A DNA stretch of 64,000 bases from Hyaloscypha bicolor E (lineage: Eukaryota > Ascomycota > Leotiomycetes > Helotiales > Hyaloscyphaceae), in NCBI RefSeq assembly GCF_002865645.1, contig NW_020194619.1, positions 1,400,442 to 1,464,441 of the forward strand. The letters are read 5' to 3'. Below the pieces are notes generated by a model, which did not search any database, had not been told where the DNA came from, and was given only the letters and a program-made list of their open reading frames with translations. Positions 11,544 through 18,639 of this stretch are shown in pieces. The position numbers were made by a program, and so were the translations under genes. Each line of letters opens with the position of its first letter. Within the stretch, counting starts at the first letter, position 1.

Positions 11544-13347
11544 ATGACTCCCGCTCACGATGATTTCGAGAAAGGCCTTTCGGCCCCAGAAATGGATTCA
11601 GGCTCGGATAAAGCACGAATGCAAGAGATTGACATCGTTGGAGGGGATCCTGGAATTCTTGCGGTGCCGACACCAAGAAGATTTGAAGCTCCAGAGTTCA
11701 TTCGGAACTGGACGCCAGAAGAACGACATGCTGCTGAAAAGAGATTGAAGGCAAAGATCGATCTCAGGTTGATGCCTATGATAATCTTGATGTATATCAT
11801 GAATTATCTGGACAGAGTAAGTCGCAGACGCGTTGTGACCGAAGTGTCTGCTGATACTTTCAGAATAATATTGCTGCCGCCAAACTGGCAGGCATTGTCA
11901 CAGATTTGAACCTCAAGGGCTCTGAATTCAATGTACGTCGCATGGGAGACCAAATTATCCACCAAGTCTAATCCAATGTACCAGACAGCTGTCAGTATCC
12001 TATTTGTCGGATACCTTCTCATGCAAGTCCCCTCAAACTTGTTCTTGAACAAGATCGGGAAGCCTTCACTTTATCTCCCAACTTGCATGATTGTCTGGGG
12101 TGCGATATCAGCGGCAACAGCAGCTTGTAAAGGCTTTGGTGGTCTTATTGCATGTCGATTCATGCTTGGTTTCGTAGAAGCTGCTTACTTTGTAAGTCTG
12201 TCTCTTCTAATTTCCAGCTTCAACTAACCATCTCAGCCTGGATGCCTGTACTATCTTTCATGCTGGTACACACGAAAAGAGCTAGGTCTCCGGACCGCAA
12301 TGTTCTACTCCGGTGCTCTCATCAGCGGCGCATTCTCTGGATTAATCGCAGCCGGCGTCAAGGCTCATATGAATGGACTTAGGGGAATGCTAGCTTGGAA
12401 ATGGCTCTTCATTATCGAAGGAGTGGCTACCATAGCAATCGCTTCCTTCGGCTACTTCATTCTGCCAGACTTCCCGCGAACTACGACCTGGTTGACTGAT
12501 GAAGAGCGTCAACTGGCTATTTGGCGACTCGACGAAGATATAGGCGAGGACGATTGGATTGACAGCCAACATCAATCCTTCAAGGTTGGACTGAAGCTTG
12601 CGTTCTCTGACATCAAGACTTATGTTCTCATGTTTATGCTCTTTGGCATTGTTGCCTCTGGAACAGTGACGAATTTCTTCCCGTACGTTCTCCCTCGAGT
12701 CTTGGAACTTCAGAACTGACAACAGCCAGGACGGTGGTTAAAACACTCAAATACAACGACGTGAACACTTTGCTATTAACAGCTCCGCCATACGTTTTGG
12801 CAGTCATCACAACCTTCCTCAATTCGTGGCACGCTGGTAAGCCTTCTTGCGCTAGTTCGAGTTGACGAACTGACATCGCCCAGATCGAACCGGAGAGCGT
12901 TTCTTCCACATTATCGTCCCTCTTTGCTTCGCCATGATCGCATACATCCTGGCGGCTGCGACGACCCACACAGGAGCTAGATACTTTGCTATGATGCTCA
13001 TGGTTCCCGGCGTATATTCCGGCTACGTAGTCGCCCTTCACTGGATCAGCAACTCAATGCCTCGTCCACCAGCAAAGCGAGCAGCAGCCCTAGCATTCAT
13101 CAACGCTGTCTCAAACACCAGTTCAATCTATGCGAGCTACATGTATCTCCCCAGCGCAAGCCCGAAATATATAGTGGCTATGATCGTGAACTGCGCTATG
13201 GCTCTGATGGCAATCGTGGCGGCGATTATTTTGAGGATGATCCTGGTGAGGTTGAATAAGAAATTGGATGCTGGCATCTTTGTTGAGGGGGCGATCAATT
13301 CGGGGACGACTGAGGCGGGGAAGAAGGGCTTCAGATTCAGAATCTGA
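11544..13347 (+). CDS. MFS transporter, anion:cation symporter (Dal5/allantoate permease) type
   Basis: Twelve-segment plasma-membrane permease for small organic anions such as allantoate, nicotinate-like or vitamin-like carboxylates; the exact substrate is unknown. 521 aa from six exons: join(11544..11816, 11864..11932, 11985..12191, 12237..12682, 12730..12836, 12884..13347). Diagnostic ACS-family motifs are MYIMNYLDR/NNIAAAKLAGI across the first intron, GYLLMQVPSN.FLNKIGKPS in TM2-loop, CRFMLGFVEAAYFPGCLYYL in TM4 and WKWLFIIEGVATIAIASFG in TM6. A cytosolic loop (DEERQLAIWRLDED) separates the halves, and TM11 carries NTSSIYASYMYLP. All introns are 44-53 nt. Cytosolic N-terminus of about 80 aa is usual for the family. 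Confidence 0.92.
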
Positions 13348-13759
13348 GGGAGGTTCGACGGATTTGATGATGAATTTTGGAGTGCTTCCAGAAATGGATC
13401 TCTTTTGTGCCGAGCCCGTTTCATAGAATCATGAATCTTCTCTGATGCGCATCTTCCTCTCTTGTGTGTTGTGATCCTCCATTTCTACCCAATGTAGCCT
13501 CGCTCGCCATGTTTCCTAACTGCGGTTCATGCTGCATGGTTTCTCTTCACAAAAAAAAGGGGGTTTCGAGTTCCTTCTCATTCCATCGACCAGGAGACGG
13601 CCTCTGGGACATGCTGGTCATGAAATCGAACGCAAGGTGGCCAGAATCACCTGCCAGACCCAGCCAAACAAGAATATCGCTTGCTTGACTGTAAGTTCTT
13701 CCCACCCGTTGAACCTAAGAGCTTTTTTCTTAATTATCAGCTTGGTTGATGCAGATGCT
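13348..13759. other. Intergenic, transporter 3' flank
   Basis: 412 nt without a supported gene. Contains the transporter 3' UTR. A run of nine A precedes GGGGG near 13551. Confidence 0.55.
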
Positions 13760-13849
13760 GTCGACCTAGAGATACCTGTCGACCTAGAGATACCTGTCGA
13801 CCTAGAGATACCTGTCGACCTAGAGATACCTGTCGACCTAGAGATACCT
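13760..13849. repeat. 18-bp perfect tandem repeat, 5 copies
   Basis: The unit GTCGACCTAGAGATACCT occurs five times head to tail without a mismatch, so each copy carries a SalI-type GTCGAC. Eighteen is divisible by three; the plus strand reads VDLEIP, the minus strand STGISR, in open frames. It abuts the truncated end of a HET domain fragment on the minus strand. Confidence 0.97.
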
Positions 13850-13867
13850 GTCAAGCAAGTATGCCTA

Positions 13868-14029
13868 GCGAAGGGTTTCCAAAGCCTCGAATAGATTGAT
13901 GCCGACTTGAAATGGATGCTCGTCAATGTAGATCTGCTTGAAGCCATCCGCAGACTTTCCCCAGGCATAGGATAATTCTTGGTATGAGCGCTTTTCTGCA
14001 AAGCTTGCATTCACAAGCTCACAGCGGAC
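13868..14029 (-). pseudogene. HET domain fragment, N-terminal part only
   Basis: Minus-strand frame encodes the typical start of a HET domain: RCELVNASFAEKRSYQELSY, then AWG, then a short strand (KQIYIDEHPFQVGINLFEAL) and ETLR, matching the family pattern YEALSYVWG...I.V.......V..NL..AL..LR. A stop follows immediately at 13865-13867, before the expected LWIDAICINQ block, and the DNA beyond is the 18-bp tandem repeat. Upstream a 12-nt C tract (14059-14070) ends similarity. No start codon in frame is supported, so this is a relic. Confidence 0.75.
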
Positions 14030-14573
14030 CGGTCGCCCTGCAGAGTATGGGGTCGGGACCCCCCCCCCCCAAGATCGCAATATACTCTCTTAAAAAAAGA
14101 AAATCTGGCTTTTACTTTTTGCATTTGCACCTGCTTATGCGGCCCCTAGTAATTTTTTACACGCGAGTAGAAAAGGTAGCTGCAAAGGTCACAGCACTAT
14201 AGTCTCCCACTTGGGATCGACGGACTGGATTCTATAAAAGACGGATGAATGTTCAGCTCTCAATGTCTCACAAGATTTTCAAGTTCAGAGGAAGTGAACG
14301 AATCACGTGACAGACCCTTGTCATCCTCTGAACTACTTGAAATTCATCGGACTCGGCTTCTGCGAGTGTGAAAGGCAACCCGAGGGAGTGAGATCAATTC
14401 GCTATGTGCGGCCGTTTTGATTACAAACAGGGAAAATCCATACGTACAGCAGGCACCCCGCTATGAAAATGAATCAGAATCCGCCGCGAACCCAGGCAAT
14501 GCTTGACCATGCTTGACCTAATGAGAGTATGTACTTATGAAACCGGTACGCCAGCGCCTTTCCATTGTGAGAA
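14030..14573. other. Intergenic with poly-C tract
   Basis: Contains a run of twelve C at 14059-14070 and the 3' UTR of the antizyme gene. No other structure found. Confidence 0.6.
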
Positions 14574-15474
14574 TCATATTTCCATGCCTAAGAAAAGCCA
14601 TTTGTCACTTGTGACATCGATATCGTTCGCCCACAGGTCCAATGTAATCAACTCGAATCCGACCCATCGAAGACTTTTCATGAAAGATTTGCGTTCGGTC
14701 TCTTGCACGGATCGATCGAGGCAGATGACTACCTGAGAGACGGCGAAGACCGTTTCGGCGAGTTCGATGAGAGCCATGAGCCTACATATGTTAGATTTAT
14801 GTGATGTGATGTGGGAGACAACATACCCTTGTTTCAAATCGGATCCAACGACCGCAGAATCAAAGAATGCAAATAGCGACTTGTTCTCTCCATTTCCACC
14901 CACGAATACCCGGAAGCTGCAACCACTAGAGTAGTCCCAGACCTCAAGCCAAGCATCCATAGCCTGTCCTCCTTTGCCATTGGCAAAGTAATTGTTGTCG
15001 TACGCACCCACACTTTCGTCAGGAGGTGAATGCGCGTTCGTACCCATCACGATAGAGCCATTATGCGCCGCCTTTCCTTCTTCACCAAGGAATACGGCTT
15101 TCATGGTCTCGCAGAAGAGTCTCTCACACTCTTCCCGGATGTGGTACGCTGCCCCCCCTCTACTGCTCCTCTTCCTGCCATCGGATTCGCGCTTCTTGGT
15201 GCCAGAGTTGCTGGGCTCGGAGATGAGCGCGAGCTCGTTGGCAGACGTCAGGGCTGCGAGAGGGGGACTTGATGGTGGTGAGGGAATCCCTGAGATCCCC
15301 AGGACCTCAGGGAAACCACAGTGCCCCGCCGGCCCCGGTAGTGGAGTAGTGGAAGCCCGTGAGGCGAGCAGAGGCGTCGACGCAGTAGGCAGAGGCGAGA
15401 ATGCTGGCGGTGCGGCCTACGCTCTCGCCATTGCGATTACTACTATTATGATTGTTGTTTCTGCTGGGAGCCAT
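14574..15474 (-). CDS. OAZ: Ornithine decarboxylase antizyme, expressed by +1 ribosomal frameshift
   Basis: Binds ornithine decarboxylase, blocks it and sends it to the proteasome, and limits polyamine uptake; polyamines raise the frameshift rate and so close a feedback loop. ORF1 is 15474..15307: 55 codons, ending GAGGALWFP then TGA in the context TTT CCC TGA. Skipping the T at 15309 opens ORF2 (15308..14827 and 14781..14574, one 45-nt GTATGT...TAG intron), 229 codons. ORF2 starts EVLGISGIPSPPSSPPL and holds the conserved antizyme body: WLEVWDYSSGCSFRVFVGG, KSLFAFFDSAVVGSDLKQGL, MALIELAETVFAVSQVVICL and SDKWLFLGME at the C-terminus. Full product 284 aa. ORF1 alone has no function known, and ORF2 has no suitable start of its own near the shift. 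An intron cannot explain the frame change: no GT-AG pair fits. Confidence 0.92.
15287..15315 (-). promoter_or_regulatory. Antizyme +1 frameshift site with overlapping stem-loop
   Basis: On the minus strand the slip site is UUU-CCC-UGA (TGA at 15309-15307). The arms UCCCUGAGGU (15313-15304) and AUCUCAGGGA (15296-15287) can pair over 10 bp, including one G-U, around a 7-nt loop CCUGGGG. The stem contains the P-site codon and the stop itself, unlike classic stimulators, which start several nt downstream. Confidence 0.75.
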
Positions 15475-15667
15475 TGCTGTCGATTTTTGCCACGGTTGCG
15501 TTGGTGGAGGGTGTGAAGGTAAGGCTGGAGATCGTCGGTCGAGGACTGGATCGATTGGAGATGAAGGTGTTTGATGGGGCGTTCGAAGATTGGAGTGCTT
15601 GATTGATTTGTTGGGGTCGAAGATCAGCGGTGAAGTTGGGATGAAGTGTCGTTGGAGTCGATTTCAT
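15446..15667 (-). promoter_or_regulatory. Upstream ORF overlapping the antizyme start
   Basis: ATG at 15667 opens a 73-codon frame ending TAA at 15446. It begins MKSTPTTLHPNFTADLRPQQ and ends in Gln-rich sequence. Its last 29 nt overlap the ATG (15474) of antizyme ORF1 in another frame, so ORF1 would be reached by leaky scanning or reinitiation. It could also be chance within a long 5' leader, or lie upstream of the true transcription start. Confidence 0.45.
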
Positions 15668-15730
15668 GATCAAGCAACGCCCCGCTAATTAAGAAAAGCT
15701 TAGCAGCATCACGTGTTTGACGCCAACCAA

Positions 15731-15955
15731 TCACAGCTCAGCACGTTCTGGCCAGGCGATCGGCTTGATTTGTCCGTCGAGTTCGAAATTCACACAGCTG
15801 GATTCGACTTCCTGCATGAACCTCATGGAATATGGAAGCATCCATGAGTAGGAGAGAGCATTCGAGGGGTCTATCATGACTCGGGGTGCTTCACGAGGGT
15901 GCCTCGGGGGTGCCTCGGTCTGGACTTCCGTCCCGTTCTTCTCTTTAGGGGCCAT
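15731..15955 (-). CDS. Possible small ORF, unrecognised
   Basis: 74 codons with a real ATG. The first 25 residues are charged (MAPKEKNGTEVQTEAPPRHP); the rest has mixed hydrophobic and acidic character (YSWMLPYSMRFMQEVESS, then FELDGQIKPIAWPERAEL). No family recognised. It lies just upstream of the antizyme transcript and may be a relic exon or chance. Confidence 0.25.
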   Translation of the reverse strand: MAPKEKNGTEVQTEAPPRHPREAPRVMIDPSNALSYSWMLPYSMRFMQEVESSCVNFELDGQIKPIAWPERAEL

Positions 15956-16669
15956 TCAGACCATGGACATAAAACCTCTCTCTTAAAATGGATACATCCA
16001 GATCGTCGATCACTACTGTATGTGCATTGCCAACCTATGGTTCTGCTTTATAAGTCACGCAGACATCACATGGTGCAGCTGATCACTGGTAAGCGCGGAG
16101 TTACAGCCTTTCACGATCGTTTCACCCCTCACCAGATGAACTCGCCTTGAGTTGCCGGAACCGACCTCCGATGTTCCCTCATACTACGCATATTGTAACA
16201 TCACAATCCAGCAGACGAGGATAATTAATAAAAATATAAAATGCTCAAGAGGGAAGGGGGACTTTCAATAATATAAAATCTGCAGGGGTGTTTCGATAAG
16301 ATAAGCCAATGAGGGGCTGCGAGGCTCGGAGTTGGGTACATGATCTGACGATCAGCCAGCACACAACCCCTCCACACCGCATACAGGCACAAAGTGCTCG
16401 CGCCATCGGACCGCTCTACATATGACTCCCTTTCCCTAGAAAAGGCTCAACCGCCTGGCAACACTAGGGGACCGACGACGACATGACTCCGAACTTTACT
16501 ACAACTTAAGCTAGGGCGTGTATTTCGTCACAGTGACCATTGTAAGTCAAGTTCTGCCATAGCCGCGCACTTCCGAAGTCCGGACAAGTGCTTGGAACTG
16601 ACTAATTGGTGGACTTGAGGCAGATATCACAGCAAGAACTCCTCAAAACATTACCCAACAGCAGACAAG
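15956..16669. other. Intergenic upstream of Yippee gene
   Basis: 714 nt without a gene; includes an AT-rich patch near 16220-16290 and the promoter and leader of the Yippee gene. Confidence 0.6.
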
Positions 16670-17560
16670 ATGGCGCCGGAACCACGGCCCCCCTTCGCAA
16701 CGTACCTCCTTCCCTCGCTCTCCTTCCCCTTCCGCCGACGCTCCTCGACCTCCTCCTACCCACCACCCTCCCTCTCCAGCTCAGCAACCTCTTCTCCCGC
16801 AACAACACCCTCCTCCTCTCCGCCCTCCGCGCACTTCATCCTCCCCTCCTCCCCAACATCCGCGAAAGCTGTGCTGCGCGCCGCGCTCTCCAAGATCCCA
16901 GAGTACAGTGGACCGTTCGGGAATAAGAATGTGACACATTTAGACGACGAGCAGGAAGAAGAGACCCGTGGCTTACAGCGCGCACAGCCTAATACCCTCC
17001 GCTGCTTAAACTGCGCAACGGACATCGCGCTCGCGAGCCAGGTGGTTAGTAAAGGCTTCACGGGACGGCATGGCCGCGCATACCTCGTCTCACCTCCCCC
17101 TTCTCCACCTTACACAATCTCAAACTCAACGAAGAAAGAGGGGAATAAGAAGGTTACTGATTTGGTCAATACGAAGGTGGGGAGGAATGTTAATAGGGAG
17201 TTATTGACAGGGCAACATGTTGTTGCGGATGTGAGCTGCACGATTTGTGGCACGGTGCTGGGGTGGAAATACGTGGATGCCAAAGAGGCGGCGCAGAAGT
17301 ATAAGATTGGGAAGTTTATTTTGGAGATGAAGAGGGTTGTGCTGGGGTTGGGGTGGGAGGATGTTGGTGTTGTGGGGAGTGCGGCGGAGGATGGGATGTT
17401 GGATGGGAGGGAGAATGGGCAAGCAAAAGAGGGAGAGGAAGTCGTGGTCTTTGATAGTGAGGATGAGGATGAGTGTGAGGATCTTTTCGCTGGGGTTTGG
17501 GATCCGGAGGTGGTGGCTAAGCGGAGAGCGAGAAGGGTGGGCAGGAAGAAGGAGAGTTGA
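16670..17560 (+). CDS. Yippee/Moh1-like zinc-binding protein
   Basis: Single-exon gene, 296 aa. The Yippee fold (also in Mis18 and cereblon) binds one zinc through two CxxC pairs. Here these are C112-x2-C115 (RCLNCATDI) and C190-x2-C193 (VSCTICGTVLGWKYVDA), spanning about residues 110-222, with the family motifs GRHGRAYLV, ELLTGQHVVADV and EAAQKYKIGKFILE. The N-terminal 65 residues are Ser/Pro/Thr-rich and the C-terminus is acidic then basic; both extend beyond the roughly 100-130 aa of a plain Yippee protein. An insertion (PPPSPPYTISNSTKKEGNKK) sits between strands of the fold. Cellular role in filamentous fungi is not established; yeast Moh1 is linked to stationary-phase survival. Confidence 0.9.
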   Translation: MAPEPRPPFATYLLPSLSFPFRRRSSTSSYPPPSLSSSATSSPATTPSSSPPSAHFILPSSPTSAKAVLRAALSKIPEYSGPFGNKNVTHLDDEQEEETRGLQRAQPNTLRCLNCATDIALASQVVSKGFTGRHGRAYLVSPPPSPPYTISNSTKKEGNKKVTDLVNTKVGRNVNRELLTGQHVVADVSCTICGTVLGWKYVDAKEAAQKYKIGKFILEMKRVVLGLGWEDVGVVGSAAEDGMLDGRENGQAKEGEEVVVFDSEDEDECEDLFAGVWDPEVVAKRRARRVGRKKES

Positions 17561-18639
17561 TGGTAATGGCTTCTAATGAGCTTTCAACGAGTCAAATGGG
17601 TAACGTTAATTAATGGTTTGGAGAGCAGGATTCGGGAGGAGCAATGGTGCAGCAATATACCCATCAGAAGGCGGCAGCAAGATTAGAGCAATGAGGTCAG
17701 GCGGTCTGAGTTTTCATTCTGGAACGGATTCGGAGTTATGCGATACTTATTCACCAGCATGGCTTAATGTTTAGATTCTCTCCCTAATTTTGGTCTGGGT
17801 TTTGGCATCGGTTGTCTTAGGATTTAGTTAGCAGCATATACCCCCATATGAATTACAACAATGATATTACAAAGAGGAGCCAGTTGTAGGGATGCATGCT
17901 TGCCTTTAAATCTTAGTCCATCTCGCACAATGCTTTGCTCAAAGAGAACTATAAATGAGCACAGAGAATCGGATATTAACCAATGATATTCCAGATTGCC
18001 AGATCCGAAGGGGAAGCAAGAGTCAGCCCCTTCGGTTACCAGTAGCGTCGAACTAAGCGATGTTTTGTTTGGAGATGCACTTGTTCGAGAAAAAGAAGTT
18101 GGGCAACTCTTAAGGAGAGACAGAAAGAAAACTTGTGGTTAAAATGCAGGCGCTAGGTCGCCTTGGGGGTTAGAAACCTGTTTCTGAAACTAAGGTGGGT
18201 TCCTATTCGACGATTCGCCAGCTTCTTCGACTTTAGAGGAATAAATAGACACAAAGACGTATCGTTATTCCAAAGTAATTTGCCTGTGCAAGTAATGGAG
18301 GCTGCTATTCGACACTTACCAACCCGCACATGCACACTCATGTGGGCAACAAGATTATTAGAGGAATAAAAGACACAATACCACATTGTTGTTAAGAAGA
18401 AAGATGCTAAGGAGCTTTGGAAGGTAGGGATTTGCTCATGCGAGCAATAAGGATTCCTCTTCGACTCATACCGACACATGCTGCTGCTCTCCTCTAGCAA
18501 ATAGCACAGTTTGAAGAACAAATAACCAACTATTAAAGAAGTAAACAGCAAGAAAGAATCAACGTCTGGAATGCACCCAAGACGTCAAAAACTAACAAAC
18601 TTGGGGCGGTCCAAGCTGTGGCCATCACCTGACTCCGCT
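17561..18639. other. Intergenic, weak internal similarity
   Basis: About 1.1 kb without a supported gene. Two short segments resemble each other: AGAGGAATAAATAGACACAA near 18235 and AGAGGAATAAAAGACACAAT near 18359, each after a TTCGAC-containing stretch, suggesting an old short duplication. Confidence 0.4.

What the first reader, a model, noticed from the sequence alone, without database searches (positions are those of the whole stretch)
14574..15474. Antizyme gene decoded by +1 programmed ribosomal frameshifting at CCC-UGA
ORF1 (55 codons) ends at UUU-CCC-UGA and the conserved antizyme body lies in the +1 frame with no splice option between them. The CCC codon before UGA differs from the UCC-UGA of vertebrates and fission yeast and from the GCG-UGA of budding yeast. 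It is a testable recoding event that automatic annotation usually breaks into two false genes.
Basis: partly seen in the sequence, partly recalled or inferred. Interest (0 to 1): 0.8.

Follow-up and report, generated by a model that had tools for sequence, protein, structure and literature searches.

The report
Fungal antizyme gene with CCC-UGA frameshift
This is a fungal ornithine decarboxylase antizyme gene that can apparently be read in full only if the ribosome skips one base at a stop codon; the mechanism is known, but the codon it slips on is a rare one that seems to have arisen once among this fungus's relatives.

Summary
ORF1 (55 codons, ATG at 15474) ends UGG-UUU-CCC-UGA, and the antizyme domain (Pfam ODC_AZ, 8e-39) lies in the +1 frame. 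Of 121 ORF1 relatives read, 76 end in W-[FY]-[SP]: 71 in Ser (UCC type), 5 in Pro. Those 5 and the window form one supported group, so UCC to CCC looks like a single change in a Leotiomycete lineage.

Corrections:
(1) ORF2 carries a conserved 45-nt in-frame intron (14826-14782), so the product is 284 aa, not 299.
(2) CCC-UGA antizymes are already in print as a tiny minority.
(3) Many relatives appear to carry an ORF1 intron ending 14 nt before the shift codon. It is absent here, and no GTRNGT donor lies within 463 nt of the ATG, so frameshifting is the only good route.
(4) 0 of 120 listed relatives contain the frameshift product; 74 of 120 join ORF1's start to the body by other junctions.

No RNA stimulator stood out. 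The frameshift itself is inferred, not measured. Verdict: a known kind of gene with an unusual, lineage-specific shift codon.

The parts
15307..15474 (-). ORF1: 55 sense codons plus UGA
   Evidence: relatives of the peptide
15310..15312 (-). Shift codon CCC
   Evidence: Read directly in the DNA
15307..15309 (-). UGA stop of ORF1, slow-to-decode partner of the shift codon
   Evidence: role recalled and from PMC5009743 passages
15313..15318 (-). UGG-UUU immediately before the shift codon; UGG at this place is conserved in antizymes
   Evidence: PMC5009743 passages
15322..15401 (-). Conserved end of the ORF1 peptide (about ILASAYCVD..GFHYSTTGAGGA), candidate nascent-peptide signal; approximate limits
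   Evidence: Alignments; function inferred
14827..15308 (-). ORF2, first exon part, +1 frame from GAG after the skipped U
14782..14826 (-). 45-nt in-frame intron, GTATGT...CTAAC...TAG
   Evidence: 15-residue insert against relatives, splice-site sequence, relatives that end at LKQG
14574..14781 (-). ORF2, second exon part, with stop 14576-14574
15268..15316 (-). Weak candidate intron GTTTCC...AAG (49 nt) that would bypass the shift site; judged not used
   Evidence: corresponds to the junction of 5 of 120 database relatives

Best explanation
The locus is the ornithine decarboxylase (ODC) antizyme gene of a filamentous ascomycete close to Stipitochalara and Rhynchosporium. Ribosomes translate ORF1 to CCC-UGA. 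While UGA sits in the A site, a fraction slip one base forward, CCC to CCU, and read GAG in the +1 frame, giving a 284-aa antizyme from an mRNA that has lost a 45-nt intron. By analogy with studied antizymes, polyamines raise the slip rate and antizyme then shuts down ODC. Shown here: the two frames, the conserved ORF1 end, the antizyme domain, the intron by comparison, one ODC-family match in the genome, and Pro at the shift codon in one group of relatives. Inferred: the slip itself, its direction at CCC, its response to polyamines, and inhibition of ODC. Specific proposal: because a tRNA-Pro that reads CCC can pair fully with CCU, this lineage may use true P-site re-pairing, which UCC-UGA does not allow.
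For: Frames and stop. ODC_AZ 8e-39 over 2-114 of 114. ORF1 relatives to 2.9e-28; 76 of 121 end W-[FY]-[SP]. Pro rows in one group, 98/87. Best PDB fold match is human antizyme with ODC, 3.3e-4, the only one at 0.001 or less. One ODC-family match in the genome. No GTRNGT donor from 20 nt before the ATG to 463 nt after it. The +1-frame sequence just after UGA (..SG[LI]PSPPSSPPLA) is conserved.
Against: No transcript, ribosome or protein data. DNA of relatives was not available, so CCC in them is inferred from protein. No RNA structure near the site beats shuffled sequence. CCC in place of UCC lowered frameshifting in a mammalian cassette (PMC5009743 passages). The fold match has low TM-scores (0.29 and 0.52) and a mean pLDDT of 64.3. 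The tRNA-Pro that reads CCC was not identified.
Confidence: 0.93

Rival explanations
1. A short intron spanning the shift site is spliced out and joins ORF1 to ORF2 in one frame, so no frameshift is needed.
For: A 49-nt GTTTCC..AAG candidate (15316-15268) joins the frames and matches the junction of 5 of 120 database relatives; another 24 of 120 join the ORF1 core straight to G[LIM]PSPP. 40 GT..AG pairs are possible in the window.
Against: The donor GTTTCC and acceptor AAG are far from the GTATGT/TAG of the gene's own intron; no GTRNGT donor near. The stretch removed is conserved as +1-frame protein. Separate ORF1 proteins ending exactly at the shift site occur in 76 of 121 rows.
Confidence: 0.04
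2. Sequencing error or a decayed gene: one base too many or too few broke an ordinary frame.
For: None beyond the break itself.
Against: P0001, from JGI-sourced contigs, is 96% identical over ORF1 and ends at the same WFP. ORF2 is intact and 94% identical to P0010 of Stipitochalara longipes over the aligned part. The break lies at the antizyme shift position.
Confidence: 0.01
3. ORF1 and ORF2 are separate products: ORF1 a regulatory leader peptide, ORF2 started at its own downstream codon.
For: ORF1 exists as separate database proteins.
Against: No antizyme precedent known to me; the +1 frame is conserved right from the UGA; ORF1 stays closely linked in position and sequence to ORF2 in relatives (74 of 120 models contain both).
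Confidence: 0.02

Closest known systems
Antizyme genes with a UCC-UGA shift site (the substantial majority; here also the 71 Ser-ending ORF1 relatives, those named by their sources including Trichoderma, Colletotrichum, Fusarium and Claviceps)
   Same: Two overlapping ORFs in +1 relation, UGA after the shift codon, UGG two codons before it, ODC_AZ body, related ORF1 peptide
   Different: Shift codon CCC (Pro) instead of UCC (Ser); Phe or Tyr precedes it here, Tyr in all 71 Ser rows
The two CCC-UGA antizymes mentioned in the review PMC5009743
   Same: Same shift codon and stop
Saccharomyces cerevisiae OAZ1, GCG-UGA
   Same: +1 frameshift at a stop in antizyme mRNA (PMC5009743 passages)
   Different: Other shift codon; strong intrinsic shifting held back by inhibitory signals
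Agaricomycete antizymes (PMC4505036)
   Same: Conserved ORF1 peptide just before the shift site
   Different: UUU shift codon, other peptide, a conserved 3' RNA structure; none of the stimulators was tested here
E. coli pheL, CCC-UGA (incidental frameshift)
   Same: Phe before CCC-UGA; 15% +1 shifting reported (PMC5009743 passages)
   Different: Bacterial leader peptide, shift thought incidental

Membership tests
ODC antizyme (OAZ) | ODC_AZ domain | tested here: met
   8e-39, 132.5 bits against a cut-off of 24.2, positions 2-114 of 114
ODC antizyme (OAZ) | Antizyme fold | tested here: met
   Best PDB match 4zgy_B, 3.3e-4; TM 0.29/0.52, 15% identity, so modest support
ODC antizyme (OAZ) | ORF2 in +1 frame of a short ORF1 ending in UGA | tested here: met
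ODC antizyme (OAZ) | UGG two codons before the shift codon | tested here: met
   UGG-UUU-CCC-UGA; rule from PMC5009743 passages
ODC antizyme (OAZ) | UCC as the shift codon (usual, not required) | tested here: not met
   CCC; CCC is a known minority
ODC antizyme (OAZ) | Target enzyme ODC encoded in the same genome | tested here: met
   One Orn_Arg_deC_N match, 7.2e-77; that it is ODC rather than a related decarboxylase was not tested
ODC antizyme (OAZ) | 3' or 5' RNA stimulator of frameshifting | tested here: inconclusive
   Five folds, z from -0.11 to 0.78; no Rfam match at gathering score in 12000-18000; no DNA of relatives for covariation
ODC antizyme (OAZ) | Frameshifting raised by polyamines | not testable with these tools
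   Needs a reporter or ribosome profiling
ODC antizyme (OAZ) | Binds and inhibits ODC | not testable with these tools
   Needs biochemistry

The most novel reading that the evidence does not exclude
A single UCC to CCC change in one Leotiomycete lineage switched antizyme from a +1 shift in which the peptidyl-tRNA cannot re-pair to one in which tRNA-Pro re-pairs fully on CCU: a natural, clade-wide change of frameshift mechanism with the regulatory circuit kept. In the window species the ORF1 intron beside the shift site is also gone, which removes any alternative-splicing bypass that intron-bearing relatives might have.
Probability: 0.35. Interest if true: 0.6.

Novelty: new member of a known kind. 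Interest (0 to 1): 0.4.

Why it matters
Antizyme frameshifting is the classic polyamine sensor. A lineage with a CCC shift codon beside lineages with UCC, in nearly the same surrounding peptide, is a natural experiment on whether peptidyl-tRNA re-pairing drives +1 shifting, and on what compensates for a codon that tested weaker in mammalian cells. It also shows that none of the 120 listed database relatives of this gene contains the expected frameshift product.

Tried and rejected
Rejected: sequencing error or decayed gene (conserved ORF1 end in other sources). Judged unlikely: splicing across the shift site.

Led nowhere: RNA stimulators on either side of the site (five folds, z from -0.11 to 0.78); Rfam on 12000-18000, two matches, both below gathering score; viral contigs for DNA of relatives, 16 pattern matches, none confirmed. 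The tRNA-Pro set is unsettled: the tRNA search scored 63 of 3058 candidates and gave 28 matches, none called Pro by ARAGORN. Pattern and DNA searches gave an intron-bearing sequence that I read as tRNA-Pro(CGG) and an 87% similar copy on C71, and one AGG-bearing sequence on C54 whose arms look degenerate; ARAGORN called none of the three loci tested. Sequence search of the PDB with ORF2 gave Tako8 and WDR5 matches and no antizyme. With the profile, antizyme chains 1zo0, 4zgz, 4zgy and 5bwa appeared at 0.0038 to 0.017, below WDR5 chains from 0.00087; I take the WD-repeat matches as chance over a short stretch of about 35-40 residues.

Literature: the 2007 survey of antizyme shift sites (DOI recalled) is not held, so whether these fungi are among its cases is unknown. 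Searches with CCC-UGA and antizyme led to one review that states the CCC-UGA antizymes (PMC5009743, passages only) and one table of slippery sequences listing CCC UGA (PMC3500957, passages only). PMC4505036, PMC2375905, PMC5640933 and PMC6173133 were also seen as passages only. Searches with Aspergillus/Neurospora and Sclerotinia/Botrytis/Helotiales were seen as listings; no listed title concerns this gene's shift site, but 20 of 28 and 10 of 251 were listed.

Full report
What is there. The gene is on the minus strand. ORF1 starts at 15474 (GCA-ATG-GCT) and has 55 sense codons ending CTG-TGG-TTT-CCC, then TGA at 15309-15307. With the U of UGA skipped, the frame reads GAG GTC CTG and stays open to the stop at 14576-14574. 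That frame matches Pfam ODC_AZ at 8e-39, positions 2-114 of 114; ORF1 matches no Pfam family at E up to 1. A model of ORF2 (35-row alignment, mean pLDDT 64.3) has human antizyme in complex with ODC as its best PDB match, 3.3e-4, the only one at 0.001 or less, with modest TM-scores of 0.29 and 0.52. By sequence the support from the PDB is weak: a single-sequence search gave only WD-repeat chains, and the profile put antizyme chains at 0.0038-0.017, below WDR5 chains. The window's genome, 82 Mb in 76 contigs, gave one antizyme match and one match to the ODC family.

Aligned with 34 relatives, the window has 15 extra residues, YVVSHITSHKSNICR, between LKQG and LMALIEL; P0009 has an insert of the same length and P0101 a shorter piece. 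In DNA this is a 45-nt stretch, 14826-14782, GTATGT...CTAAC...TAG. Among the 120 listed relatives, 92 matched the search motif: 85 have no insert, P0009, P0011 and P0018 have the 15-residue insert, and four others have inserts of 1, 6, 16 and 16 residues. Of the 28 without the motif, P0091, P0096, P0110, P0113 and P0114 end exactly at LKQG, as expected if their donor is GTAAG read as a stop; that last step is my inference. Without the intron the product is 284 aa (55 + 229; one search prints 285 with the stop). The donor lies 480 nt beyond the ORF1 UGA. A review states that junctions 50 nt or more after a stop can trigger mRNA decay and that the exon junction complex takes part in this in Neurospora crassa (PMC6173133, passages). 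So mRNA that is not shifted may be a decay target; this is inference.

ORF1 is a conserved peptide. Alone it found 8 proteins at E up to 10, best 2.9e-28, one of them from Rhynchosporium graminicola. A 14-row profile found 211, of which 120 were listed. Of the 121 distinct ORF1 proteins held from both searches, 76 end in W-[FY]-[SP]: 71 WYS, 3 WYP, 2 WFP. The other 45 end elsewhere; many run into unrelated residues right after the GA[AG]G-type core, which I read as an unspliced ORF1 intron with a donor such as G|GTAAG. Among the W-ending rows, 11 carry such an insert by the script's pattern, and six more that it missed are visible in the same output (P0151, P0177, P0202, P0206, P0230, P0240). 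On this reading the intron ends 14 nt before the shift codon. It is absent in the window, where GGC-GGG-GCA-CTG-TGG runs straight on. These are readings from protein, since DNA of the relatives was not available.

The shift codon. 64 of 120 ORF2 relatives show x-P-E in the +1 frame across the site, which, if they align as the window does, fixes the last two bases of the shift codon and the U of the stop as C-C-U. An ORF1 that ends in Pro should then have CCC, and one that ends in Ser, UCC. Only the window's CCC is read directly. One more row, P0008, reads ..VVSLR.. in the third frame, which also fits CCC (hand reading, not counted). In a tree of 77 ORF1 rows built without the last residues, the window and the 5 Pro rows form one group (98/87) with a single change between Pro and Ser. 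Only 52 columns were kept and the bootstrap had not quite settled, so other forks are weak. The nearest rows outside, P0181 and P0171, end in Ser. The simplest account is one UCC to CCC change.

How it probably works. [quoted passage not shown] The window has UGG there and Gly-Ala-Gly-Gly at -8 to -5. It also says that only two CCC-UGA antizymes were known in an extensive survey, that CCC in place of UCC significantly reduced frameshifting in a mammalian cassette, and that E. coli pheL shifts at 15% on CCC-UGA with a role for the Phe before it. The window has Phe before CCC; P0001 and P0002 have it too, and the other Pro rows and all 71 Ser rows have Tyr. From base pairing, a tRNA-Pro that reads CCC can pair fully with CCU after a +1 slip, while a tRNA-Ser on UCC cannot pair fully with CCU. 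I therefore propose slippage with re-pairing. I could not settle which tRNA-Pro genes this genome has. No fold on either side of the site beats shuffled sequence. A stimulator may be the conserved ORF1 peptide, as shown for the different peptide of Agaricomycetes (PMC4505036, passages); that is untested here.

Splicing as a rival. 40 GT..AG pairs could join the frames, but no GTRNGT donor lies from 20 nt before the ATG to 463 nt after it, while the ORF2 intron has one. A weak candidate, 15316-15268 (GTTTCC..AAG, 49 nt), corresponds to the junction in 5 of 120 database relatives; 24 of 120 join the ORF1 core straight to G[LIM]PSPP; 43 more have other junctions, 2 are unclassed and 46 lack the ORF1 core. 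None of the 120 contains the frameshift product. The stretch that such junctions remove is conserved as +1-frame protein, typically SG[LI]PSPPSS. Its length varies from 11 to 14 residues in 63 of 64 rows, though rows open in this frame are the only ones that could be listed, so lengths in whole codons prove little by themselves. I judge most of these junctions to be artefacts of gene prediction. In relatives that keep the ORF1 intron, a real distal acceptor that bypasses the UGA cannot be excluded without RNA data; in the window that intron is gone.

Verdict. The observation and the interpretation stand, with an added intron and a shorter product. The system is of a known kind. What is unusual is the shift codon, its apparent single origin in one fungal lineage, and the absence of the nearby intron in this species. 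I found no paper that describes this in the searches listed, but the key 2007 survey could not be read, so priority is open.

Noticed in passing
13758-13852: Perfect 18-bp tandem repeat, 5.3 copies (CTGTCGACCTAGAGATAC), in an open minus-strand frame that reads TGISRS repeats.
   Followed up: partly
13865-14089 (-): Start of a heterokaryon-incompatibility (HET)-like domain, Pfam HET 0.0058, below its cut-off; possibly a fragment downstream of the antizyme gene.
   Followed up: partly
16619-17560 (+): Divergent neighbour with a Yippee/Mis18 zinc-binding domain, 5.9e-13.
   Followed up: no
15667-15446 (-): Upstream ATG at -193 opens a 73-aa frame that overlaps the ORF1 start; it would matter for antizyme translation if the mRNA begins upstream of it. 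The transcript start is unknown.
   Followed up: no
P0163 (ORF1 relative, not in the window): Reads AEWYS and then GGSYLR without a stop at the shift site: a base error, or a gene without the UGA.
   Followed up: no
24 of 120 ORF2 relatives: Database models join the ORF1 core straight to G[LIM]PSPP. If any reflects real splicing from the ORF1 intron donor, antizyme could be made without frameshifting in those fungi.
   Followed up: partly
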